Source of the DNA: Chromera velia
Lineage: Eukaryota; Sar; Chromeraceae
DNA length: 25,097 nt
Assembly (NCBI GenBank): GCA_018398765.1
Contig: JAHBMJ010002799.1
Span: forward strand, 70,001-95,097
Reading direction: 5' to 3'
Of this stretch, positions 2,926 to 25,097 are shown piece by piece. Both the position numbers and the translations under genes were made by a program. Numbering within the stretch: position 1 is the stretch's first letter; each line of letters opens with the position of its first letter. The notes beneath the pieces are model-generated. The model was given only the letters and a program-made list of their open reading frames with translations. It was not told the DNA's origin and searched no databases.

Positions 2926-5049
2926 GCAGGTGAGCTGATTCTTTTCTGTTCGCCTGTTTGCCTGGCTGCTGTGTTGTCGGCTGGCTGTCACTGTTGGTAC
3001 CGTTCATGAAGGGGAGGCTAGAGAGGAGCGAAATAACATAATCGAGGCTGCCCGTCTGCGCTGTTCCTTGGGTTTTTCATGTGACGATCTTTATGCCCCT
3101 AGTTATGCCCTTGGGGTTGATTTCATTTCGGGGAATTGCGGCGAGTGAGGCTTCAGGCTTTCTTCATCTACATTGGCGCTCTGACTGTCATCACCTGCAT
3201 GTAACCCAGTTGGCTTCTGTCCCTACATGTATTCTTTTGGCCTGTCTTGTGTGTCTGAAAGGAAGGATCCAAGAGAGAAAGGGTAGAAGAGAAAGGAAAG
3301 GAAAAGAAAGACGTTTCTGTGCTGTCTGTTTTCGGTGCAGATTGAGCGAATCCAGGAAGTCCTTCTACTTGTGCATGCTCCTCTTCATCATTCGATCTTG
3401 GGAGGTGGGTAGCCTAAAGAGATCAAGGGATCGTAGACAGGGAGGGGGAGGGAAGACACATAAAAGTGCATGTTCAAGGATCGACATGAACGTTTTGAGT
3501 GAGACTCTCCTTTTTACTGTTTTTTTTCAACCAATTCGGCTTTCTACCTTACTCTTGCGGCTTGTGCCGTTTTCTTTCTCCCTTTAATTGCCTTGCGTCG
3601 CTTGATCTTCGCTGCAGGGAGACTCATGGAGCTCTCTGTTCTGTGGCTGCGTCCCTCCAATTCGGAAGCGGAGCTGTCTTCTTCCGTTTCTTCGACGAAT
3701 CATGCAGTGCCTGCGAGTGTTCTCCATCTCAGCTAGACTGTATTTCTCCTTTTCTCACCCTATATCCCTGACAGAGTTCGTGAGTGACAGATAGGCGGAG
3801 AGGGAAAAATAAGTTGAGAGAGAGAGAAAGAGAGTGGGGATGTAGATGTGTTCCCATAGAGGTGGAAGTCAGAGAGTCTTCAGGCTGTTAAATTGTTTTT
3901 CCTCCTTTCTCCCTCCTCCTTCAGAAAGGTCGAGTTGAGAGAGTTTGTGAGTGCATGCATGCGGATGGATGCCAGGACGGATGAAGGACCTGTGTGAAGG
4001 TATGGAGGTTGAAGGGGGAGACATTGAAAAGGAAAGACGGAGATGGAGGGGTCGAGCAAGAAAAAGGAAGAGCAAGAAGGAGAAGAGAAGGAGCGAAAGT
4101 AAAGTCGGAAGGTAGATGTGTCCCCATCATGTTGAGTGGCTTGTTTTTCTCCAATCGATCATGTATTTGAGGTTTCTTCTGTTTTTTCCTGGGACACCGT
4201 TTTCTCTTGCCACTTGTCTACATTCGCGCATCATTCTGCTGCTCTGCTCCTTTTGTTTTCTCCCTTTTTAAATGATCATTTTCTTCTGCATATTCTCTCT
4301 TATTCTGGTTCAAAACGGTTTTGATTCTCATGTATTCTTTCGTATGCAGAGACGTCGACTGATCAAGCTAGGGCGGTCTCTTTTTTTTGTATGTTCCCTT
4401 CTTTCCTCCCCTGACAATCCACGTAGTGATGACGATGGGTTCTGCTTTGTGCTGAACTGAATCATTGGAGGACATTTATTTGGCGAACGTGCATGCATGG
4501 ATCGGTACATGTGTTAGAAACATATATCCAGCCTTCTTCTGCACGCCTCTGCACCTTTCCTCTGCAAATCTCTCCGCCTTCTCCGATGTGCAAGTGTTGC
4601 CTATACGTCAACCCCCCCCTCCCCCCCTTCAATTTGATCAGAGCAGATAAATGCCAGGGGCAAGACCAGAGTCGGCATGGTCTTCTTTCGGACCAAGGGG
4701 GGCGCGGGCGGTCAATACGACTGGTCACCACGTACGTACGCCTTGACTTCCTTGAATGAGTTGCCTCAGCAGATGTTCTTGAAACAAGCCTTGCACCTTG
4801 TCTTCTTTCTCTTTAATTCTCTGCCGAACTGGCACCATGTCATTGGAGAGCAGTGTGCTATAGTGCGTACGTCGCGGTTTGCCGTTCTTCTTGAAGTCTT
4901 TGTACTGCAGGGGGCTGGTTGTTGTTGCTTTTTGTAAGTTGAAGGCACCTGGTTTGTTCCTTCTGCTTCCTGCAGGCCAGTCTCTTAGATAAGAGCTGCT
5001 TCTTGATCAGCGGGAGGCAACGATGGCCGGGCCCGGGTGATTTGTGACA
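2926..5049. other. Intergenic, low-complexity patches, no gene recognised
   Basis: About 2.1 kb with pyrimidine-rich and purine-rich tracts (for example GA-rich 3790-3840 and 4020-4110) and poly-C at about 4612-4630. Candidate acceptors such as CTGCAG near 3615 occur, but no consistent exon chain or domain follows. I see no coding function. Confidence 0.4.
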
Positions 5050-7045: not shown

Positions 7046-10000
7046 GTAGGCATTGTTCAGAATAAATGAAAAGTACCGTAGAGACAAAAAGATGTAGCTA
7101 GGGCAGCTCCTGTTTTTGTACTATACAGCCTGCGTACACAAGGGTTTACTAGATATGTGAGTGTATGCAGACCCAAACTTTGTAGGGCCGACTGTGGACT
7201 CTGCGTCAATACACCGGGGTTAGCCAAGAACAGCATAATGGTTCGATTTACAGACAGACTCTATGATACATATCAGTTTTGTATATGGTGTGTGCGTTTC
7301 CGGGAGCACTCAGGCGTGATCCTGTGTGTGTATGGTGTCCCTGTGATGCTTTGTACTGCTTCAGCCTGTTGGTTCTAGAGAGACTATTCCCCCGTTGTCT
7401 CATTTCTCTTGGCTCCCTTCTTTCACTTTCATGTTGGCTTTCTGGGTCCTTGAAAGACCAGTCAGGACAGTGGTAATAACTCCTTTCTCACCTCTTTTTT
7501 TCTTGATACTTGCAGAACTCTCTGTGGACGAGTGCACGACTAACGTCCACAATTATGACACGAATACGGTTTGTACTAACAGTGCATCCTCCTTCACTTG
7601 CCAGTGCGGTGCTGGGTACTCAGACGACAGCACCATGAGAGATGGCACAAGTTGCGCAGGTACCGAGAGCACGAACGGGGCGAAGATGTGGCAGAAAAAA
7701 GTTTGAAAGACAAAAACATCACACGTACCCCAATAGATGCACAGCCATCCTTGTATGAAGAGGTTCACAAATACAGACAGGAAAGATGCAGGTTAACACA
7801 GATGCAAACGTAAGTGGGAACGAACAGAGCAGTACAAAAAGCAGCTGCATGGGCCAACGAGCATAGGAGAGGAAAAAGGCAAAGCAAGGGACGTATGAGT
7901 ACCAGAGAGACACCGAAAGGAGCAGAAAGCAAGTCTGGGACACGCAAAAAAAACATGGGAAGAATATAAAGAAGGAATTTTCAAACAATAGCTGCTTTCC
8001 CATCCCAAGCTCCTTAGCGATGCAACCATCTGCAACGGTACCATTTCATGCCTCCATTTGCCATTTGTACCGTCAATTCTTTCCTTTTGCTGCGCTTTAT
8101 GTTGTGTCACGCAGCTGTTTTGTGCGATGAGACCAGCGACACCCAGCCGAACACCTTAAGGTCCAACGTCCAGCGAGCAGACTCATCGCAGACAGGAAGC
8201 ACGGGTGCCACTGCGACTTTCACCTACACATGCGACAACGGGTACTCTCTGAACAGCGCCGCTGCTGTCACGTTCTCTTGCACAGGGGATTTTTTGGGAG
8301 TCTTGACGTGGAAGGGGACTTCTCCGACGTGCTCAGGTCGGCTACAGACCGATGGCAAGGCAGAGAAAACTGTGGCTGTCAGATTTGTATGGTACGTGCA
8401 GTTTTTGCTGTCCTGCGGAGGAGTTTCATCCTATGGTGAACGCAGACTAGTCCCTTACAGTCATCTTTCTCTTTCTACCTCGGGATACATTTCTAGTATT
8501 GTCATACACTTGCATCGACTGGCTTCGATCATGCACTTGCTTGCTTTTGTTCTTGTGCTTTCTTTGATTGGACTATCTGTCTATTTCTCTCTCAAGAGCT
8601 CGTCGTATCCATTTTAGTGTTTCGGTCAAGCGACGGGGTTTGCTGCAATCGGAAGGCCTGGGATCCGTTTGCGTGTTTTTCCGTTTCTGCTAACGTGCAG
8701 CCATCACATGCGACGAGACCAGCGACACCCAGCCAAACACGCTGGGGTCTAACGTCCAGCGTGCTGATGCTTCTCAAACAGGGAGTACCGGTGCTACCAC
8801 GACATTCACTTACACCTGCGATAACGGGTACTCTCTGGACAGTGCCGCAGCCGTCACCTTCAGCTGCACAAGGGACTCCTATGGGACTTCTACTTGGAAA
8901 GGGACTCCTCCGACATGCTCAGGTACAACACAGGTATATGGCCTTTTCAAAGGTCGAAGGACAAAACACAAGGGGGACAGGAAAAGAAAAGATGGCAGTT
9001 GACTGACTTAGTCGATCAGGAGAGTGATCAAAGAAAGAATCAAATACCAAGCGAAGATCGAACGGAAATGAAGGGCCGGAAGAGAAGGAAAAGAGGGACA
9101 AAGGGGAGAGGAACATGAGAGAGGTGCTCAGCCACGCCCTGTTTTGTGGCCTCTCATTTCTCATGATGATGACGCAGAAGAGCAGCTCGTTTGAAGAATC
9201 AGGACCACGCTCTGAGGATCGACATCTTATTTGTTTCACATTGCTCTTTTCTGTGCTCTGACTACAGCTGTTTCGTGCGACGAGACCAGCAACACCCAGC
9301 CAAACACCTTAGGGTCCAACGTCCAGCGAGCAGACTCATCGCAGACAGGAAGCACGGGTGCCACTGCGACTTTCACCTACACATGTGACAACGGGTACTC
9401 TCTAAACAGCGCCGCTGCTGTCACGTTCTCTTGCACAGGGGATTCTCTGGGAGTCTCGACGTGGAAGGGGACTCCTCCGACGTGTTTAGGTCGGCTACAA
9501 ACCGATAGCAAGGCAGAGAAAACTGTGGCTGTCAGATGTGCATGGTACGTGCAGTTTCCGCTGTCCTGCGGAGGAGTTTCGTTCTATGGTGGACACGGAC
9601 TAGTCCCTTACAGTCATCTTTCTCTTTCTACCTCTGGATACGTTTCTAGTGTTGTCATACACTTGCATTGACTGGCTTCGATCATGTACTTGCTTACTTT
9701 TGTTCTTGTGCTTTCTTTGATTGGACTATCTATCTATTTCTCTCTCAAGAGCTCGTCGTATCCATTTTAGTATTTCGGTCAAGCGACGGGGTTTACTGCA
9801 ATCGGAAGGCCTGGGATCCGTTTGCGTGTTTTTCCGTTTCTGCTAACGTGCAGCCATCACATGCGACGAGACCAGTGACACCCAGCCAAACACGCTGGGG
9901 TCCAACGTCCAGCGTCCTGATGCTTCTCAAACAGGGAGTACCGGCGCTACCGCGACGTTCACTTACACCTGCAATAACGGGTACTCTCTGGACAGTGCCG

Positions 10001-13000
10001 CAGCCGTCACCTTCAGCTGCACAGGGGACTCCTATGGGACTTCTACTTGGAAAGGGACTCCTCCGACATGCTCAGGTACAACACAGGCATATGGCCTTTT
10101 CAAAGGTCGAAGGACAAAACACAAGGGGGACAGGAAAAGAAAAGATGACAGTTGACTGACTTAGTCAATTAGGAGAGTGATCAAAGAAAGAATCAAATAC
10201 CAAGCGAGGATCGAAAAGAAATGAAGGGCCGGAAGAGAAGGAAAAGAGGGACAAAAGGGAGAGGAACATGAGAGAGGTGCTCAGCAACACCCTGTTTTGT
10301 GGCCTCTCATTTCTCGTAATGATGACGCAGAAGAGCAGCTCGTTTGAAGAATCAGGTCCACGCTCTGAGGATCGACATCTTATTTGTTTCATATTGCTCT
10401 TTTCTGTGCTCTGACTACAGCTGTTTTGTGCGACGAGACCAGCGATACCCAGCCGAACACCTTAAGGTCCAACGTCTAGCGAGCAGACTCATCGCAGATA
10501 GGAAGCACGGGTGCCACTGCGACTTTCACCTACACATGCGACAACGGGTACTCTCTGGACAGCGCCGCTGCTGTCACGTTCTCTTACACAGGGGATTCTC
10601 TGGGAGTCTCGACGTGGAAGGGGACTCCTCCAACGTGTTTAGGTCGGCTACAAACCAATAGCAAGGCAGAGAAAACTGTGGCTGTCAGATGTGCATGGTA
10701 CGTGCAGTTTCCGCTGTCCTGCGGAGGAGTTTCGTCCTATGGTGGACACAGACTAGTCCCTTACAGTTATCTTTCTCTTTCTACCACGGGATACGTTTCT
10801 AGTGTTGTCACACACTTGCATTGACTGGCTTCGATCATGCACTTGCTTGCTTTTGTTCCTGTGCTTTCTTTGATTGGACTATCTGTCTGTCTCTCTCTCA
10901 AGAGCTCGTCGTATCCATTTTGGTATTTTGGTCAAGTAACGGGGTTTGCTGCAATCGGAAGGGATCCGTTTACGTGTTTTTCCGTTTCTGCTAACGTGCA
11001 GCCGTCACATGTGACGAGACCAGCGACACCCAGCCGAACACGCTGGGGTCCAACGTCCAGCGTGCTGATGCTTCTCAAACAGGGAGTACCGGCGCTACCG
11101 CGACATTCACTTACACCTGCGATAACGGGTACTCTCTGGACAGCGCCGCAGCCGTCACCTTCAGCTGCACAGGGGACTCCTATGGGACTTCTACTTGGAA
11201 GGGGGCTCCTTCGACATGCTCAGGTGCAACACAGGCATATGGCCTTTTCAAAGGTGGAAGGACAAAACACAAGGAGGACAGGAAAAGAAAAGACGGCAGT
11301 TGACTGACTTAGTCAATCAGGAGAGTGATCAAAAAAAGAATCAAATACCAAGCGAGGATCGAACGGAAATGAAGGGCCAGAAGAGAAGGAAAAGAGGGAC
11401 AAAGGGGAGAGGAACATGAGAGAGGTGCTCAGCAACGCCCTGTTTTGTGGCCTCTCATTTTTCGTAATGATGACGCAGAAGAGCAGCTCGTTTGAAGAAT
11501 CAGGACCATGCTCTAAGGACATCTTATTTGTTTCACACTGCTCTTTTCTGTGCTCTGACTATAGCTGTTTCGTGCGACAAGACTAGCGACATCCAGTCAA
11601 ACACCTTAGGGTCCAACGTCCAGCGAGCAGACTCATCACAGACAGGAAGCACGGGTGCCACTGCGACTTTCACCTACACATGCGACAACGGGTACTCTCT
11701 GAACAACGCCGCTGCTGTCACGTTCTCTTGCACAGGGGATTCTTTGGCAGTCTCGATGTGGAAAGGGACTTTTCCGACGTGCTCAGGTCGGCTACAGACC
11801 GATGGTAAGGCAGAGAAAACTGTGGCTGTCAGATGTGCATGGTACGTGCAGTTTCCGCTGTCCTGCGGAGGAGTTTCATCCTATGGTGGACACGGACTAG
11901 TCTTTTATAGTCATCTTTCTCTTTCTACCTCTGGATGCCTTTCTAGCATTGTCACACACTTGCATCGACTGGCTTCGATCATACACTTGCTTGCTTTTGT
12001 TCCTGTGCTTTCTTTGATTGGACTATCTGTCTGTCTCTTTCTCAAAAGCTCATCGTATCTATTTTGGTGTTTCGGTCAAGCGACGGGGTTTGCTGTAATC
12101 GGAAGGCCTGGGATCCGTTTGCGTGTTTTTCTGTTTTTGCTAACGTGTAGCCATTACATGCGACGAGACCAGTGACACCCAGCCGAACACGCTGGGGTCT
12201 AACGTCCAGCGTGCTGATGCTTTTCAAACAGGGAGTACCGGCGCTACCGCGACATTCACTTACACCTGCGATAACGGGTACTCTCTGGACAGTGCCGCAG
12301 CCGTCACCTTCAGCTGCACAGGGGACTCCTATGGGACTTCTACTTAGAAGGGGACTCCTCCGACATGCTTAGGTACGACACAGGCATGTGGCCTTTTCAA
12401 AGGTGGAAGGACAAAATACAAGGGGGACAGGAAAAGAAAAGACGGCAGTTGACTGACTTCGTCGATCAGGAGAGTGATCAAAGAAAGAATCAAATACCAA
12501 GCGAGGATCGAACGGAAATAAAGGGCCGGAAGAGAAGGAAAAGAAGGACAAAGGGGAGAGGAACATGAGAGAGGTGCTCAGCAACGCCCTGTTTTGTGGC
12601 CTCTCATTTCTTGTGATAATGACGCAAAAGAGCGGCTCGTTTGAAGAATCAGGTCCACGCTCTGAGGACATCTTATTTGCTTCACATTGCTCTTTGCTGT
12701 GCTCTGACTGCAGCTGTTTTGTGCGACGAGACCAGCGACACCCAGCCGAACACCTTAGGGTCCAACGTCCAGCGAGCAGACTCATCGCAGACAGGAAGCA
12801 CGGGTGCCACTGCGACTTTCACCTACATATGCGACAACAGGTACTCTCTGGACAGCGCCGCTGCTGTCACGTTCTCTTGCACAGGGGATTCTCTGGGAGT
12901 CTCGACGTGGAAGGGGACTCCTCCGACGTGCTCAGGTGGACTACAGACCGATGGTAGGGCAGAGAAAACTGTGGCTGTCAGATGTGCACGGTACGTGCAG

Positions 13001-16000
13001 TTTCCGCTGTCCTGCGGAGGAGTTTCGTCCTGTGGTAGACGTAGACTAGTCTCTTATAGTCATCTTTCTCTTTCTACCTCTGGATGCCTTTCTAGCGTTG
13101 TCACACACCTGCATCGCCTGGCTTCGATCATGCAGTTGCTTGCTTTTGTTCCTGACAGTGTACTTTCTTTGATTACACTGTCTGTCTCTCTCTCAAAAGC
13201 TCGTCGTAACCATTTTAGTGTTTCAGTCAAGCGACAGGGTTTGCTGCAATCAGAAAGGATCCGTTTGCATGTTTTCCGTTTCTGCTAACGTATAGCCATT
13301 ACATGCGACGAGACCAGCGACACCCAGCCGAACACGCTGGGGTCCAACGTCCAGCGTGCTGATACTTCTCACACAGGGAGTACCGGCGCTACCGCGACAT
13401 TCACTTACACCTGCGATATTAACGGGTACTCTCTGGACAGCGCCGCAGCCGTCACCTTCAGCTACACAGGGGACTCCTTTGGGACTTCTACTTGGAAGGG
13501 GACTCCTCCGACATGTTCAGGTGCGACACAGGCATATGGCCTTTTCAAAGGTAGAAGGATGAAAAACAGGGGGGGGAGGAAAAGAAAAGATGGCAGTTGA
13601 GTGACTTAGTCAATCAGGAGAGTGATCAAAGAAAAAATCAAATACTAAGCGAGGATCGAACGGAAATGAAGGGCTGGAAGAGAGGGAAAAGAGGGACAAA
13701 GGGGAGAGGAACATGAGAGAGGTGCTCAGCAACACCCTGTTTTGTGGCCTCTCATTTCTCGTAATGATGACGCAGAAGAGCGGCTCGTTTGAAGAATCAG
13801 GGCCACGCTCTGAGGACATCTTATTTGTTTCACATTGCTCTTTTCTGTGCTCTGACTGCAACTGTTTCGTGCGACGAGACCAGCGACATCCAGCCAAACA
13901 CCTTAGGGTCCAACGTCCAGCGAGCAGACTCATCACAGACAGGAAGCACGGGTGCCACTGCGACTTTCACCTACACATACGACAACGGGTACTCTCTGGA
14001 CAGCGCCGCTGCTGTCACGTTCTCTTGCACAGGGGATTCTCTGGGAGTCTCGACGTGGAAAGGGACTTCTCCGACGTGCTCAGGTCGGCTACAGACCGAT
14101 GATAAAGCAGAGAAAACTGTGGCTGTCAGATGTGCATGGTACGTGCAGTTTCCACTGTCCTGTGGAGGAGTTTCGTCCTATGGTGGACGCAGACTAGTCT
14201 GTTACAGTCATCTTTCTCTTTCTATCTCTAGATGCCTTTCTAGCATTGTCATACACTTGCATCAACTGGCTTCGATCATGCACTTACTTGCTTTTATTCC
14301 TGTGCTTTCTTTGATTGGACTATCTGTCTGTCTCTTTCTCAAAAGCTCGTCGTATCCATCTTGGTATTTCAGTCAATCGACGGGGTTTGCTGCAATCGGA
14401 AGGGATCCGTTTGCGTGTTTTTCCGTTTCTGCTAACGTGTAGCCATTGCATGTGACGAAACCAGCGACACCCAGCCGAACATGCTGGGGTCTAACGTCCA
14501 GTGAGCAGACTCATCGTAGACAGGAAGCACAGGTGCCAGTGCGACTTTCACCTACATATGTGACAATGGGTACTCTCTGGACAGCGCCGCAGCCGTCACC
14601 TTCACTTGCACAGCACATGCATATGGAGTATCCACTTGGAAGGGGACTCCTCCGACGTGCTCAGGTAAGCATTAGGCTTGGGCCTTTTCCTTCTAGTTGA
14701 GTCTGCTTTGCATCAGCTGTTAGATTGACAATCGGTGATTCTATTTAGTTTTTCGTCGCTGCTTGCTTTGTGAGCGAGTTATCTTTGTTTATGTTCTTCT
14801 TTATTGATATGGACGGGATGAAAGTTTTGCTCGATAGTCAAGAAAGGCGTTCATGATTAGCCTTCCTAATCACTTTATGTCTGTCAGTCATTCTGATTAT
14901 TGCTCTTCACACGCATGGCCGATATACATGATTTTCTTCTCATTCGCTTAGGGTACGATTGTTTGCATCTACGTGCTTGTGGGGACTTCTGGCTTCCTTT
15001 TCTGCAGCTGTCACTTCTGATGAGACCAGCGACCCTCAGCCGAACACTTTGGGATCTTAAGTTGTCCGATCGGACTTTTCACAAACAGGGAGCACAACTG
15101 ACATGGCCACCTTCACGTACGCCTGCAATTCTGAATACGCTTTGGACAGCGCTGCGGCCATCAACTTCACTTGCACTGGGGACTCCTATACAACCTCAAC
15201 CTGGAAGGGGACTCCTCCGACTTGTTCAAGTAGGATCACGCAAATTCATTTTTAAGTATCGCTTTGTATAATTGTATTCACTAGCACTGTATGCTTTTTT
15301 ATCACGTCTCTGGATCAGATGAAACACTTCATTGAATCCCGCATGCAACAAATCGATTGAATACCGATCGAAAAACTTTCAATTGTTTAATTATTCCAGA
15401 GGATATGGGTCAGATTCGATAATCCAGTGACTGATTTCTTTTCCAATGCTCTCTCTGGGCCTTTGACCTTTGACTCACCACCCCTGTCTGCCTCGTTGGC
15501 TTTGCAGGACCGTCTGCCTCTTTGTGTATCTTCCAGTATTAATATCTTCCCACGATTTCTATCTGCTTGCAGATATGGACGAGTGCACAGATAACATACA
15601 CGATTGTGACACAGTTGCCACTTGCACAGACACAGATGGTAGCTTCACGTGCACATGCCTGTCTATCGGGTATACTGACAGCGTCGGGGATGGAGTGACC
15701 TGTGACAGTCAGCGGTGTCTGTTTTTTTTTTCTTTTGTTAAACCCTTTTTTAGTGATGTAAAAATTTGCAAACTCTTCCACCTTAACGACAAAAAGTAAC
15801 AAGTCCGTTGTCGTCTTTTCGGATTGTTGTGGAAGGAAACCACGTCTAGCTCTCATAGCTGAACAGATCGATTGCTTACTGTCATTGCAGTTAGACAGAC
15901 GTTCCTGTCCTTTTACTTATTTTTCCCTCTCGAACTCAAACCTTCCGGATTTATGTCCATGCGCATCCATGCAATCAATACAGATATCAATGAATGTATC

Positions 16001-19000
16001 AACAGTTCGCTTCACACCTGCGACTATGGAGCGGGGTGCACTAACAGCATGGGCTCTTTCTCTTGCAACTGCAATAGAGACTCCACGATCGTTGACTACG
16101 GGTCGCTAGCAGGAACCTCTTGCAGAAGTGAGCGTGGTAGTTTGGGAGGTGGTTCTGTATATCAGTTTTGTGCCATTAAATGGTGAATGTCATCGTAGTC
16201 TTATCGTACCTGTACTTCTTTGTGCAAGCCAACCTTTTTTGGTAGCATTTGTTTGTGTCGTTTTCAAGCATTACAGAATATGTATGTGGCTTTTGCTAGT
16301 GAGTTGCTCAGAATGACTGCCCCTAAGCCCAACGGATAGCATAGAGCTTTTTTGAATACGTGAGTTGCACTCGAAACTCAGTCGTGCAGGCTGTCGAAGT
16401 CATGAATACTATATTGGATCCGGCTGGGGGTCTGGATTCAGACAAGAGACGGGGGTGACGAGTGTGGATAACTGTGAGAGTCTCTGTGACCAGGACCTTC
16501 AAAAAGTTGATTGTTTTTACTTCACCTGGTGGAGAAACCAATTTGGAGGAGGCTCCGATTGCCAGAGGAGGGGGTGTGACATGTTCAGAGATCTTTCTTT
16601 GGGTGTTGCTCTTTCGAGTGATCCTTGGAATACAATGTCGTCTCCTAAATTCTGCTGTAAGTTACTGACTCGGACAACACGGCAAGAAGCGCTTCATTGG
16701 TTGATGAATTGTTACATTTGCTTCTTCTGTGCAAATTCGATGTAGTTCGCCTTTCTTCTCTTTAGATTTCCCTCTCTGCAGTACCTTTTCCTCCTTTTCT
16801 CCTCCAGTCTTTCCGACTTCAAGTGCGTAGCCAATTTAATCATGCACACACTCTTTCAGCACTCAGAAGCTCACAATCTCTCTCGGTGCAGTATTTTGTG
16901 GAACATCTCGACCCACTCTCTCAATTTCCTTCAAAAACCTAGGCTGCTGTGTATGGATGGCCCCTAATTGAATGCATGCAGCTTGCTATGATCAAGGCTT
17001 GAGCATAATATCGAATCTGCTGTCGTCGAGCAGCGGAGTCACTACTGCAGTTGAGTGTAGCAAGCTCTGCACAGACGACGGATCATGCAAATATTTTGGA
17101 TACGATATTGCCACTCAGAACTGCTCACTACACTCAAACAATACAGAGACCTCCGCCGTGACCAGTTCGGTGATCGGCCCTGTCATGTGTGGTCGGCCGG
17201 TCCTCCCTTAAGTCATCTTACAGTGGTCCTGCTACCATATGAGCTGCCATTTTGCATCTTTATGGAGACGTGAAGCCTTTTTTTTCTTCTCATACAGTAT
17301 GAAAATAAATACATAACTTTCTTTCTGTTGCTCTGTTCCTATCTCTCTCCCTATCATGTATACTTCTTCGCCTAATGCAACCAATTTGAGACTATCTGAG
17401 GGGAAGAGGGAATCCTCGGATATATCAAAGCATTCGAGGTTTTTTCGCAATGTGAACGAACCTTTCAGAGTCACAGTTGCTTCTGCTCCGTGCAGTTTTG
17501 CTTTTTCTTTTATGGGTCGTCTGTTCTGGCTAGAGAAGCGAAAAGTGGTTCACAAGCATAGAAGACTGTTTTTCTTCTCTGACTGCTGCAGAGAAAAATG
17601 AGTGTACCCTGAGCACCCACAACTGCGACCCGGCTGCCAACTACACAAACACGGTGGGGAGCTTCGTTTGCAACTGCACGATGGGATACTTTAGCACCTC
17701 CGGATGCCACGGTCAGTATTGATCAGAACTTGATACGATCTTTCAGTGTTAATTTCAAATTTTGGCCTCGATCGCGACTTCTTACGCTTTGCTGTCCGGA
17801 TGCCTTTGCCTCTTCTAATCCCACTTCTTGGTCTGTGAAAGAAAGTCATTTTGCGGTTCTTTGGCCTTCTATTACTTGAGAGGAAAGTCGGGAAATTCTG
17901 TTGAAGAAGAGTGACTTTTTTGTTTTTTAATGCAGTCAGCTCATTTTCTCCAGTGTGTTTTACTTTTTTGTTGTTTCTGTTCTATGATGATCCGATGGAC
18001 AGACGAATATGCTGGAGGAGTCTCAGACCATGACTGCGACTACGGAGCGACTTGCTCCAACACAAACGGAAGCTTTGCATGCGCTTGCAACATGCACGAA
18101 AACTATACAGACGTCTCTGCTACGCTAGGGAAAGCGACAGGAACCTTCTACCAATGTCAGTACCCTTGTTTTGCTTCTTTCACATTCAAAGCCTCTAGTT
18201 TTTGAATGCTTTTATGTGGAGACCTCCTTTTATGAGCTTGAAGGCATCTCCTTCACATTTCTCCCCCACACGGAACGGCTTGAAGTCTCCAAGTGAAGGT
18301 CACTTTGGTCTACTTCGTTCTGTAGCAACTTTTTAGTTTCGGAGACTGAGTCTGTTTTCATTTGATTAATCTATCAGAATCGAAGCTTAAGTGAATTCAC
18401 AATGCATTCTTCCATTCCCAACCTCTTGTTGTGGTTCCTCTCTTGCCCCATTTTTTCCAAGCAGCCTGCTACGACCCTGGCATCTACATCCCAACAACAG
18501 GAGGCGCCCTTGTCGACTACCAAGGCCCAAACGACGGGGCTCAGACGCACCAAGAGTACCAGGCGCACTGTTTTGCATACCCCGGTTGTTGGTATTTCAG
18601 CTGGTGGGATTATGAGTACACAGGGACCTCAAAAGGGAGATGCTTACTCCAAAAAGACAACCTTCACAGCGAGCGATACGCGGGCGAATCCTACAGACAC
18701 GTGGCGGGTGGAAAATTTTATTGTGAGTACCGCCGTACTCCCCGACTGTATATATGCGGCTTTGCGGTTTGATTCAATTTCCATGCCTCTTTCTCCTTTC
18801 CCCCCTGCGTTGTACTTTCGGTCTGCAGGAAGTATTTTTGACTTTCTTTCCAGCACTGCCTTTCGATCTCTTTTCTTCGGCCCCCCCGTTCCTTCCGTTT
18901 CGCTGCCCAAATGACTGAGTCAACGATTGGCTGACTGGCTGACTATCTGACAGTGTGTGTGTTTTGGAAATTTGTATTCGGTCACGGATCGGGGAAGGGT

Positions 19001-19966: not shown

Positions 19967-20080
19967 AAACACATCCTGTGAATTTTGTCAGTATGTTGAT
20001 TTTCTTCGGTGAGAGCTAGAGCAGTTTTCGCTGTACATTCTCGTAATTTGAAAATGAGTTAACAAATGCGCTTAATTGTC
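19967..20080 (+). other. Probable 3' UTR and flank of the modular gene
   Basis: An AT-rich stretch after the stop codon. AATAAA at 19962-19967 is the best polyadenylation signal. No further domain exon is recognisable. Confidence 0.35.
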
Positions 20081-20310
20081 GCTTGCAGATCTAGGATCAA
20101 TTTCATCTCCGTTTACTTTCATACAGAAAATGTATTTCATATAGCTCTGTATGAAAGAATTCTGTATGAAAGTAAACGCTTACAGATCTAGCATCAATTT
20201 CATCTCCGTTTACTTTTATACAGAATAAGAAATTATATTTCATACAGCTCTGTATGAAACAATTCTGATGAAAGTAAACGCTTGCAGATCCAGCTTCAAT
20301 TTCATCTCCG
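20081..20310 (+). repeat. Tandem repeat with internal foldback arms
   Basis: The block GCTTGCAGATCTAG-ATCAATTTCATCTCCG starts at 20081, 20178 and 20280 (periods 97 and 102). Between blocks lie inverted arms: 20110-20128 pairs perfectly with 20160-20178 over 19 bp, and 20207-20225 pairs with 20263-20280 with minor changes. Each block also carries a CAG resembling a splice acceptor. It looks like a foldback or MITE-type insertion duplicated in place. Confidence 0.85.
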
Positions 20311-20415
20311 TGTTTGCAGCTAAAAGCAGCTACAAGAGGAACGTAGAAGGCCATACAGAAGCCAAGTCTTCGGACAGTGAGGGTTCGTTTGTTTCCTTCC
20401 TTTTGCTGGTGATAA
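20311..20415 (+). other. Possible orphan exon fragment
   Basis: After acceptor-like GTTTGCAG (ending 20319), phase 1 reads KSSYKRNVEGHTEAKSSDSE before GGTTCG. It could be an extra 3' exon of the modular gene or chance. No domain is seen. Confidence 0.2.

Positions 20416-21445: not shown

Positions 21446-21446
<1 letters not shown>
21195..21446. other. Intergenic, no gene recognised
   Basis: Short frames on both strands without motifs. Confidence 0.35.
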
Positions 21447-21503
<57 letters not shown>

Positions 21504-21546
21504 TTGTATGTGTGTATGTGTGTGTGTGTGTGTGTGTGTATGTGTG
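21447..21546 (+). repeat. (CT)n then (TG)n microsatellite
   Basis: About 50 bp of CT dinucleotides with a few changes, then about 45 bp of TG/TATG. A plus-strand frame through it is low-complexity and not coding. Confidence 0.9.
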
Positions 21547-21608
21547 TTACCCCTAAGAAGCCTTCCTATGACCCTATGGTCTGTCAATCAAACTCCGGGC
21601 TTTAGCAG

Positions 21609-22635: not shown

Positions 22636-22796
22636 GAAGGGGATTAACTTTTTTGTTTCTTCTCTTGTCTCCCCAAGGGGTTGTGGGAGGGGATGTCTCG
22701 GCTCTGCCCGGCATGGTCAGGGGAGGGGGGGTGATGGAGGTGTGTCTGCGGCGGTTATGGCAGACCTAAGGGAGAGGTGGGTGACTGCTCTTTTAT

Positions 22797-24482
22797 GTGC
22801 TCCATGCTCTGAGGAGGGGGCCTCCCCTTCCGAAAAAGGCTGGGATGGTGAAAAAGTTGTTGGATGTGTTGGCTGTTGTTCCGGTGGATAAGGCTCAAGG
22901 TGATCTAGCCTTTCTATGTGCATGGAAGTACAGTCAAGCTATAAGAGCAGCTTTTATAGATAACCGATCGTATGCTGTCTTGCAACAGGCGGACTTTGAT
23001 TGCGCTATTAATGATCTGGCGAGTGGCATCGCGGACTAGTCTGCTGCCCTGAAGTCTTTTCTTTTATGTTTTGGTTCTCTGAATAGAAGGAAGCATCGTT
23101 TTGGGACTGGTCTTCTATGGGCAAAAAGGAAATTTTGGGGGGACGATGGTCGGTTGCCCGCGGGCTGGTCGTTTATCAAATACCGCCCGCTCGTCTCGTA
23201 TGCCTTGCATGGACGTAAGTCTCTCTTTTCCTTTGCATGTAAATGTTTAAATGGCCTGCTTCGTTACTTCGGCCCTCACTGTGACTTGAACTCAACTTTT
23301 TCTTTTTAAGAATGTGTGTCTGTATTCAACGCCGGGTATGGACGTTCCGCTGATCGGTCCGAACAGCTTTCGCTGAAGCCTGACTGGCCTGTTGGTCACA
23401 TTAAGATGGTTGTTGATGATATCAAGGCTTTTTTCCCCTTCTTCCCATGCGATGCCTTTCTGTTGTCACTTAGAAAGTTCGTCGTGAGGGTGAAGGCAGA
23501 ATCTCGACACAGATATATCGTTCTGCCAAAGTTCCGTCCTTTCTGTAAGAAGGAGGCTGGGGGGGCATGTGGAGAGGTATGGGTATCACGCAGACAATAT
23601 GTGAAGCCTGCTGCCTTCTTGTCCTCTCATAACAGATTCGCAGATGCCATCTCATACCCTATTGATGTCCTACCGGAGATCGTTGACCTTGACTTTCGTA
23701 CTAATTTTATTCATGTTCATGGACGACTGATTCGACAGAAGGAAGGCTTCCCTCAGGGGAGTCCATACTCTCCTGGAGGGGCAAGATTCTTTGCAGCCTG
23801 GCAACAGTTTTTGGTTGCTGACTCTTTCTCTGTTTCATCTTGGGAAGGTAAGTTATGGTTTGGTACATGATATATGGATGACCGCTCTCTTTTTATTCAT
23901 TTTCCTGGCTGTGCTTCTTCTGATGTAATGAGTCTTTGGGATGGGAGTCCTCCTGTGTTACTTTTACAGGAAGATCTTTACAGTCCTGAATGTGTCTTGG
24001 AAAGGCAGAGGGGCTCCACGGTGCTGGGGCTTCGGATTTTCTTCCTCTAACAGACACCCCCTGTTTTACTTTTTACAGCTGCAAACCCTAATCGGGATGC
24101 TCTCATCGAATGGTATCATAACCTGTATGCTTTTTCCTTTTTGTGCCTCCATGATTTTGATAATGCTCTTCCATTCCCCTCCTTCCCTACCTTGAAGAGA
24201 GTTAGATTCATCCATAGTTTTTCTTGCATTCCTTGGTTGCAGGGAATGATCGGACAGAATCTGATGAGTTTGAATCTATTGTGTTCCTTGTTTTCCTGTA
24301 ATGCCCCTGCTTGTGTTTTTGTTGATGAACTGACTTTTCTTTTTCTTGAATGCTTTCTTCTTCGTTGGCCTTTTCGTTTTCTCGTGAAGGTTTTTTCTGA
24401 TGTCATTGCTCGTTTAAGGAGTCCTTCGTTGATCGCATTATGGAATGAAAGGACTTTCTTTCTTTTTACTGTTCTTGGTTGA
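22797..24482 (+). pseudogene. Reverse transcriptase remnant of a retroelement
   Basis: A single frame runs 1.7 kb with in-frame stops at 23037, 23307, 23868 and 24048. Reverse transcriptase motifs appear in order: a finger motif (FIKYRPLVSY, about 23178-23207), motif A (MVVDDIKAFFPFFP, about 23406-23447), motif B (FPQGSPYSPGGARFF, about 23748-23792) and the catalytic YMDD at 23871-23882, directly after the TGA at 23868-23870. A long C-terminal region ends near 24482 without a recognised domain. No long terminal repeats, protease, integrase or endonuclease were found, so the class (non-LTR, Penelope-like or other) stays open. Several stops mark it as dead. Confidence 0.78.
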
Positions 24483-25097
24483 TTTTGTTATATTCCCTCT
24501 TTTGATAACTGATCTTCTTATGTTCTTTCCTGCTTATACAATTGAGTGCACTATTCACCTGCTGGAAGTGATAGACAAAAGACAGCAGCAAAGAGGAAAG
24601 GGGGGTCGCGCGCGTCGGTTCTCATGCCTTGTCCTATGCTTCTCGATTGATCAGATGTTGCATTCTTGGAGTCAGTCCATCTGATATTGCATGCACGGTT
24701 CTGGTGTGTCAGCACCATTGTATATGTAATCAGACCCGTGACTTTTCACGAATGATGCGCGTGTAGAAGGTGCATACATTAATTATTCACTTTTTTCGGC
24801 GTCCCCACCCGGATTGCATAAAAGTGGAATTTTTTGCATGCATTCTTTTTGCTCGATTATTTGATTTACCCAGAAGTGAGAGCATGCCGTCATATTGACC
24901 AATCTTGGAGATGGTGATTTTGGTAGAGTCCACCGTCGGTCCCTTAGCAAACAGTACGTGCATAGCAGGACTGTCTCGGCTGTTGGAAGAGAAGTAATCA
25001 TACTAGAACATTCTTATTTAATACTCTCTTATAGTATCTGCTATAATCAACTTAAAATAGGGGTGTATCCTCCTATTAGGACACCGGCCCCGGGGGG
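24483..25097. other. Intergenic, no gene recognised
   Basis: Mostly AT-rich with no supported open frame. It closes with a GC-rich palindromic patch (GGCCCCGGGG-like) at the window edge, which may be the start of another GC island or a cut-off repeat. It could hold the 3' end of the retroelement. Confidence 0.35.

What the first reader, a model, noticed from the sequence alone, without database searches (positions are those of the whole stretch)
10421..15229. Disabled sushi exons scattered among intact ones in a frame-tolerant array
A3 (TAG 10477), B4 (TAG 12345), B6 (TGA 14502, TAG 14517) and C (TAA 15058) have in-frame stops and A6 lacks its acceptor AG, yet intact exons lie between and after them. 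Because all are phase 1-1, skipping restores the frame. Either the gene is dying, or splicing bypasses bad modules and yields variable repeat numbers.
Basis: partly seen in the sequence, partly recalled or inferred. Interest (0 to 1): 0.7.

Follow-up and report, generated by a model that had tools for sequence, protein, structure and literature searches.

The report
Sushi-exon array eroded by C-to-T mutation
In the alga Chromera velia, five of the six stop or splice-site lesions in a tandem array of sushi-domain exons are C-to-T (G-to-A) changes relative to sister copies, and the same one-sided change marks the array's introns and a neighbouring multicopy element, so this is likely a gene being eroded by a mutation process that may favour repeated DNA rather than one kept alive by skipping its bad exons.

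Summary
Invariant cysteines are also missing in A3, B5, A6 and C.

"The gene is dying" is supported; "splicing bypasses bad modules" is not. Exons take C:G>T:A hits as densely as introns, intact exons are no more constrained than disabled ones, and 0 of 82 full-length exons of the family on nine other sampled contigs has a stop.

The lesions share a cause. Of 130 copy-private substitutions (B6 and C left out), 97 are C:G>T:A, 15 A:T>G:C and 18 transversions. A second broken array (C613) and a dispersed element in this window show the same skew. The annotated protein of this locus skips A3 and B4, but also omits open exons and includes intron and far-downstream sequence: it looks like a gene-finder dodging stops.

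Whether the process recognises repeats (like fungal RIP) is open: the classifiable methyltransferase matches are DNMT2-like, and long young duplicates in healthy arrays are not significantly less transition-rich. No RNA was available.

The parts
8115..14664 (+). Tandem array: about 5.6 units of 1.15 kb (exon A - intron iA - exon B - intron iB), 88-96% identical between copies (B6 78-80%)
8115..8336 (+). sushi exon A1, open, 4 Cys
8701..8922 (+). sushi exon B1, open, 4 Cys; Pfam Sushi 22.7 bits (cut-off 20.7)
9268..9489 (+). sushi exon A2, open, 4 Cys
9854..10075 (+). sushi exon B2, open, 4 Cys
10421..10642 (+). sushi exon A3, TAG at 10477 (majority codon CAG), Cys3 lost
11002..11223 (+). sushi exon B3, open, 4 Cys
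11565..11786 (+). sushi exon A4, open, 4 Cys; skipped in the annotated model although open
12151..12372 (+). sushi exon B4, TAG at 12345 (majority codon TGG)
12714..12935 (+). sushi exon A5, open, 4 Cys
13296..13520 (+). sushi exon B5, open, one extra codon, Cys3 lost
13862..14083 (+). sushi exon A6, open, acceptor CAA instead of CAG, Cys2 lost
14443..14664 (+). sushi exon B6, read by eye as a mosaic of B-like, A-like and unlike sequence; TGA 14502 and TAG 14517 in the A-like part
15008..15229 (+). sushi exon C, outside the tandem unit, TAA 15058, Cys1 lost
7516..7659 (+). EGF exon 1, open (EGF_CA 34 bits)
15573..18722 (+). open downstream exons: EGF2 15573-15707 (EGF_3 40.6 bits), EGF3 15984-16127, PAN1 16390-16656 (PAN_1 14.6 bits, below cut-off), PAN2 16982-17191 (PAN_1 38.9 bits; end uncertain), EGF4 17592-17711, EGF5 18003-18155, PAN3 18465-18722 (no Pfam match). 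EGF3, EGF4, EGF5 and PAN3 are labels by eye
22827..25017 (+). stretch matching a dispersed multicopy element; a 421-bp piece has 39 matches in this genome including itself; this copy is the most C:G>T:A-mutated of the three compared

Best explanation
The disabled sushi exons are the visible part of a one-sided C:G-to-T:A mutation load spread over exons and introns of a tandem array in Chromera velia, and the array is likely a decaying gene eroded by cytosine deamination, predicted to be directed at repeated or silenced DNA, not a working gene that relies on exon skipping. Shown: the anatomy and lesions; the 97:15:18 split of private changes (C:G>T:A, A:T>G:C, transversion); equal density in exons and introns; lack of visible constraint; no stops in the sampled healthy sister arrays; the same skew in a second broken array and in the dispersed element. 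Inferred: a unit of about 1.15 kb amplified to 5-6 copies; function was then lost, or the copies drew the mutation process, and cytosines on both strands mutated at roughly CG = CA > CT > CC, producing stops where CAG, CGA or TGG codons were hit, Cys to Tyr where TGC was hit, and loss of the A6 acceptor. Frame tolerance (phase 1-1) likely comes from how sushi modules are built and is not evidence of bypass. Untested: the enzyme or chemistry, and any RNA. The confidence given is for decay through C:G>T:A changes; that the process is directed at repeats or silenced DNA I hold at about one in two, and the second rival below shares the decay.
For: Private substitutions in A, B1-5, iA and iB: 97 of 130 C:G>T:A, 15 A:T>G:C, 18 transversions (97 against 15, P 7e-16); A exons alone 20 of 21. 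Both strands about equally (77 C>T, 80 G>A, a count that includes B6 and changes shared by two copies). Intron private changes 65:12:14; at that rate equilibrium GC would be about 15% against 48% now, so the regime is recent or confined to this repeat. Four stops (A3, B4, both in B6), the A6 acceptor and three Cys losses (A3, B5, A6) are C>T or G>A relative to sister copies (A3 and B4 stops; the others read by eye). Exon singletons C:G>T:A against other: 32:7 here, 31:47 in 23 healthy exons (P 1.3e-5). Noncoding duplicates at 92-99.6% identity: ts:tv 107:17 here, 41:28 in healthy loci (P 3.8e-5). C613 array: 28:3:5 over six exons. Element copy in this window: 55:11:4, same context ranking. Nonsynonymous (with stops) to synonymous singletons 29:10 here, 23:55 healthy (P 5e-6).
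Against: Against long (at least 400 bp) young noncoding duplicates in healthy loci (27:8, 6 pairs), the array's 107:17 is not significantly different (P 0.20), so the skew may belong to long young duplicates in general and not to dead ones. Older long duplicates (84-92% identity, 4 pairs) show no excess (noncoding 223:197), which a general repeat-directed process would not obviously give. Healthy exons have a mild C:G>T:A excess too (31:13, P 0.01), and by that ratio alone the array (97:15) differs only at P 0.035. B exons alone hint at weak constraint (9 of 22, P 0.067). Exon C, outside the tandem unit, is also broken; its TAA could not be polarised and its Cys1 codon (TCT) differs from a Cys codon by a transversion. 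A few healthy exons also lack GT (4 of 82) or AG (2 of 82) at the expected place. The flanking EGF and PAN-like exons are open, so part of the gene could still work. No DNMT1-, DNMT3-, DNMT5- or RID-like enzyme appeared in the one PF00145 search.
Confidence: 0.74

Rival explanations
1. Splicing bypass: the gene is expressed, the spliceosome skips stop-bearing or acceptor-less phase 1-1 exons, and a family of proteins with variable repeat number results.
For: All 13 exons are phase 1-1, so any skip keeps the frame; the annotated Chromera velia protein of this locus skips A3 and B4.
Against: Intact exons are not more constrained than disabled ones (21:19 against 14:11, P 0.80); open B5 and A6 have lost cysteines; sampled sister arrays have 0 of 82 stop exons; the annotated model skips open exons and includes intron and far-downstream sequence.
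Confidence: 0.1
2. Ordinary pseudogene with the genome's usual mutation spectrum: after loss of function the array drifts, and C:G>T:A excess is what any young neutral duplicate shows in this species. (This shares the decay with the best explanation and denies only the special process.)
For: Long young healthy noncoding duplicates are also transition-rich (27:8) and not significantly different from the array (P 0.20); healthy exons show 31:13.
Against: Short (150-400 bp) young noncoding duplicates show 19:28 and older long ones 223:197; introns would fall to about 15% GC under the array's spectrum but stand at 48%.
Confidence: 0.35
3. Truncated but useful gene: the protein ends at the A3 stop and the first four intact sushi modules with EGF1 are what is kept.
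For: Signal-peptide-like start (by eye), EGF1, A1, B1, A2 and B2 are open, the sushi exons with all cysteines.
Against: A1, A2, B1 and B2 together carry 9 nonsynonymous and 13 synonymous changes, too few to show constraint; no transcript seen.
Confidence: 0.1
4. Assembly artefact: collapsed or miscalled repeats created the stops.
For: Near-identical 1.15-kb tandem copies are hard to assemble from short reads; L032 duplicates part of L029 at 99.6%.
Against: Miscalls would not be expected to give one-sided C:G>T:A in exons and introns alike; all copies differ from one another and frames are kept.
Confidence: 0.03

Closest known systems
Repeat-induced point mutation (RIP) of fungi
   Same: C:G>T:A skew on both strands in repeats; Ti/Tv well above the 2 used for fungal elements (PMC4352252, passages read): longest array pair 326:58, element pair 89:8.
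   Different: No RID/Masc1-like enzyme seen; CG and CA about equally hit, not CA alone; no excess in long duplicates at 84-92% identity; organism is an alveolate alga.
5-methylcytosine deamination in silenced repeats (CpG-signature elements of some fungi, PMC4352252)
   Same: C>T with CG highest; element copy CG 0.151, CA 0.084, CT 0.044, CC 0.027.
   Different: CG is only 1.1-fold (array) to 1.8-fold (element) above CA; the two methyltransferase genes that could be classified are DNMT2-like.
Decaying tandem-exon gene (pseudogene)
   Same: Stops, splice-site loss, cysteine loss, no visible constraint.
   Different: Mutation spectrum more one-sided than in sister exons (32:7 against 31:47).
Chromera velia sushi/EGF proteins (e.g. 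Cvel_23030, P0047; P0048 also has PAN domains)
   Same: Same sushi module type with EGF modules before it; P0047's modules match exons of L031 by eye.
   Different: Healthy sister arrays sampled have no stops; this one and C613 are broken.

Membership tests
Repeat-induced point mutation | C:G>T:A transitions dominate differences among repeat copies | tested here: met
   97 of 130 private changes
Repeat-induced point mutation | CpA (or fixed dinucleotide) preference | tested here: inconclusive
   CG .064, CA .056, CT .035, CC .018
Repeat-induced point mutation | RID/Masc1-type methyltransferase | tested here: inconclusive
   PF00145 search gave 4 matches on three contigs; the two genes searched further are nearest to DNMT2, the third was not classified. 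PMC4352252 (passage) says part of PF00145 is missing from RID proteins, so RID could be overlooked.
Repeat-induced point mutation | depends on duplication length and identity | tested here: inconclusive
   young noncoding duplicates: 27:8 if at least 400 bp, 19:28 if 150-400 bp (P 0.0015); old long ones 223:197
Repeat-induced point mutation | acts in the sexual cycle before meiosis (recalled) | not testable with these tools
   needs crosses
Pseudogene | inactivating lesions and no visible constraint on the coding sequence | tested here: met
   B exons alone P 0.067 for weak constraint
Pseudogene | no functional product | not testable with these tools
   no RNA or peptide data; none of the 12 hits is labelled as an MMETSP transcript
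Regulated exon skipping | skippable phase-matched exons | tested here: met
   13 of 13 exons phase 1-1
Regulated exon skipping | retained exons under constraint, skipped ones not | tested here: not met
   21:19 against 14:11, P 0.80; small counts
Regulated exon skipping | transcripts lacking the exons | not testable with these tools
   no reads; annotated model only
Sushi (PF00084) | profile match above cut-off | tested here: met
   B1, the one exon scanned: 22.7 bits, cut-off 20.7

The most novel reading that the evidence does not exclude
Chromera velia has a RIP-like genome defence: long, near-identical duplicates, mobile elements and gene arrays alike, are recognised and mutated C to T, in a genome where the methyltransferases recognised so far are DNMT2-like, and this sushi array is a host gene caught by it.
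Probability: 0.24. Interest if true: 0.85.

Novelty: new variant of a known kind. Interest (0 to 1): 0.52.

Why it matters
A review treats RIP as fungal and says such use of mutation may have evolved elsewhere (PMC9246332, passages read). A one-sided C>T load in a repeat array, a broken sister array and a dispersed element of an alga close to Apicomplexa makes that question testable with existing genomes. It also warns that annotated Chromera proteins can be patchworks made by gene-finders dodging stops.

Tried and rejected
Exon bypass as a family habit was rejected because the sampled healthy sister arrays carry no stop exons. CpG-only decay was rejected because CA is hit about as often as CG. 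An APOBEC family search (PF08210) gave nothing in this genome, but it rang in no control genome either, so it is uninformative. Strand coordination was weak (43 neighbouring hits on the same strand, 32 on different strands). Dinucleotide indices did not separate cleanly: TpA observed/expected is 0.55 in the array and 0.54 in L033, but 0.30-0.55 in the other fetched loci on other contigs and 0.60-0.61 in the window's flanks of the array. Comparing the gene's 3' part with paralogs failed, because besides itself only seven matches of 51-135 bp at 73-87% were found. Two short repeats in the window show no strong skew (5:5 and 13:6). Pfam gave no family for two open frames of the dispersed element. 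The B1 exon alone found no protein homologue.

Rows dropped before counting: B6 and C are left out of the polarised counts, and ties out of the rates and codon counts; one search includes B6, and the pairwise counts include B6 stretches. One L033 exon (7786) was left out of its spectrum. L038 was left out of some controls. Two incomplete sister exons of 84 were left out of the 82. The healthy exon spectrum uses 23 exons in 4 clusters at an 84% threshold; 86% gave 26:12:25 and 88% gave 12:7:17.

Literature: on C>T repeat mutation or 5mC in chromerids, searches listed no such paper as far as titles and starts of abstracts show; searches were on the protein family. Passages were read in PMC9998398 (no mention of Chromera or Vitrella), PMC4751559, PMC4501334, PMC9246332 and PMC4352252; no paper was read whole. 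PMC5607778 is not held.
Full report
Observation. Thirteen sushi exons of 222 nt (B5 225) lie between 8115 and 15229, all phase 1-1. Invariant cysteines are lost in A3, B5, A6 and C, so no fully sound sushi exon follows A5. The unit exon A - intron - exon B - intron, about 1.15 kb, repeats about 5.6 times with 88-96% identity between copies, B6 excepted. B6 reads as a mosaic, and C lies outside the tandem unit. EGF1 upstream and the EGF and PAN-like exons downstream are open.

Organism. A protein search with joined open exons found Chromera velia CCMP2878 entries; the best (P0046, 653 aa) is 98% identical over 42% of the query. The genome held is 177.8 Mb in 4040 contigs; the paper gives 193.66 Mb in 5953 scaffolds (PMC4501334, passages). 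P0046 maps piece by piece to this window and is the annotated model of this locus. It starts at 4677-4730, uses A1, B1, A2, B2, B3 and A5, reads into the intron after A5 (to 12991), joins 13777-14082 (upstream intron plus A6), then EGF4, then 22680-22766, which lies just upstream of the stretch that matches the dispersed element. It skips A3 and B4, but also open A4 and B5, and the open EGF1-3, EGF5 and PAN-like exons. I read this as a gene-finder avoiding stops. It is not RNA evidence; none of the 12 hits is labelled as an MMETSP transcript.

Is the array under selection? C:G>T:A changes hit 56 of 1424 exonic and 85 of 1807 intronic G/C sites (sites times copies; P 0.30). The nonsynonymous share is 20 of 34 in A (56.5% expected) and 9 of 22 in B1-5 (59% expected, P 0.067), 29 of 56 together (P 0.42). 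Intact and disabled exons do not differ (21:19 against 14:11). Stops in A and B1-5 occur at about the blind rate (A 1 observed, 1.77 expected; B1-5 1 observed, 0.94 expected).

Sister arrays. One search returned 19 loci: 18 around some, not all, of the sushi matches, and one flank of this contig. Besides C613, nine contigs hold 84 exons of this type with no stop; 82 are full length, of which 2 have fewer than four cysteines, 4 lack GT and 2 lack AG at the expected place. Five of the loci (L040, L041, L045-L047) gave no exon of this type. One exon (L032) may be an assembly duplicate of one in L029. C613 (L033) is different: 3 of 7 exons carry stops, and two lack GT at the expected donor.

Spectrum. 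Copy-private changes (C:G>T:A / A:T>G:C / transversion) are A 20/0/1, B1-5 12/3/3, iA 40/5/8, iB 25/7/6, in all 97/15/18 of 130. C613 gives 28/3/5 over six exons; healthy exon clusters (23 exons in 4 clusters at 84% identity) give 31/13/34. Among noncoding duplicates at 92-99.6% identity, ts:tv is 107:17 in the array and 41:28 in healthy loci (P 3.8e-5). The intron rates imply an equilibrium GC near 15%, but the introns are at 48%. So the process is recent or confined to this repeat.

Elsewhere. A stretch at 22827-25017 belongs to a dispersed element: a 421-bp piece has 39 matches including itself, 28 of the others nearly full length at 90-98%. Among three copies, the odd-one-out changes are 55/11/4 in the window copy, 15/9/5 in L052 and 6/1/1 in L051. 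Its context ranking (CG > CA > CT > CC) is that of the array. Only three copies could be read.

Results against a special process. Long young noncoding duplicates in healthy arrays are also transition-rich (27:8) and do not differ significantly from the array (P 0.20), while those of 150-400 bp are not (19:28; long against short P 0.0015). Old long ones are balanced (223:197). Healthy exons show 31:13, and by that ratio the array (97:15) and C613 (28:3) differ only at P 0.035 and 0.048. This fits a process that sees long, near-identical repeats, but also, less well, a shift with age. The array and the element copy lie in the same window, so a regional effect is not excluded, although C613 is another contig and two short repeats in the window show no strong skew.

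Machinery. A six-frame search with PF00145 gave 4 matches on three contigs. Two genes (L025, L026) are nearest to DNMT2 structures (1g55, 9hgm); the third (L028) is a short piece I did not classify. No DNMT1-, DNMT3- or DNMT5-like gene appeared in that search. Intron-split or RID-like genes could be missed.

Verdict. The gene, at least its sushi array, is likely decaying, and four of the five stops, the A6 acceptor and three of the four cysteine losses are C:G>T:A changes relative to sister copies. The stop in C could not be polarised, and its lost Cys1 codon differs from a Cys codon by a transversion. Exon bypass is possible in principle but has no support here. Whether the process is RIP-like remains the open and interesting part.

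Noticed in passing
L033 (C613:4001-14000): A second sushi array with stops in 3 of 7 exons, two lost donors and a 28:3:5 C:G>T:A skew over six exons.
   Followed up: partly
window 22827-25017: Copy of a dispersed element with 28 other nearly full-length matches at 90-98% to a 421-bp piece; a YMDD-like motif with a stop close by was read by eye, but no Pfam family matched two open frames.
   Followed up: partly
P0046 (UniRef entry beginning A0A0G4HIT): The public protein for this locus is a patchwork with intron and far-downstream sequence.
   Followed up: yes
L025, L026-L027, L028: Two DNMT2-like genes and one unclassified C5-methyltransferase piece; no other type appeared in the one PF00145 search.
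   Followed up: partly
window 17192-17211: PAN2 reads on into a TAA if its donor is not used, so the gene may have two alternative ends.
   Followed up: no
window 20080-20311: 97-bp tandem repeat, 2.3 copies, 88% matches.
   Followed up: no
window 21446-21547: (CT)n followed by a TG-rich microsatellite.
   Followed up: no
L032 (end of C1467) and L029 (start of C186): 498 bp at 99.6% identity between two contigs: likely the same locus split in assembly.
   Followed up: no
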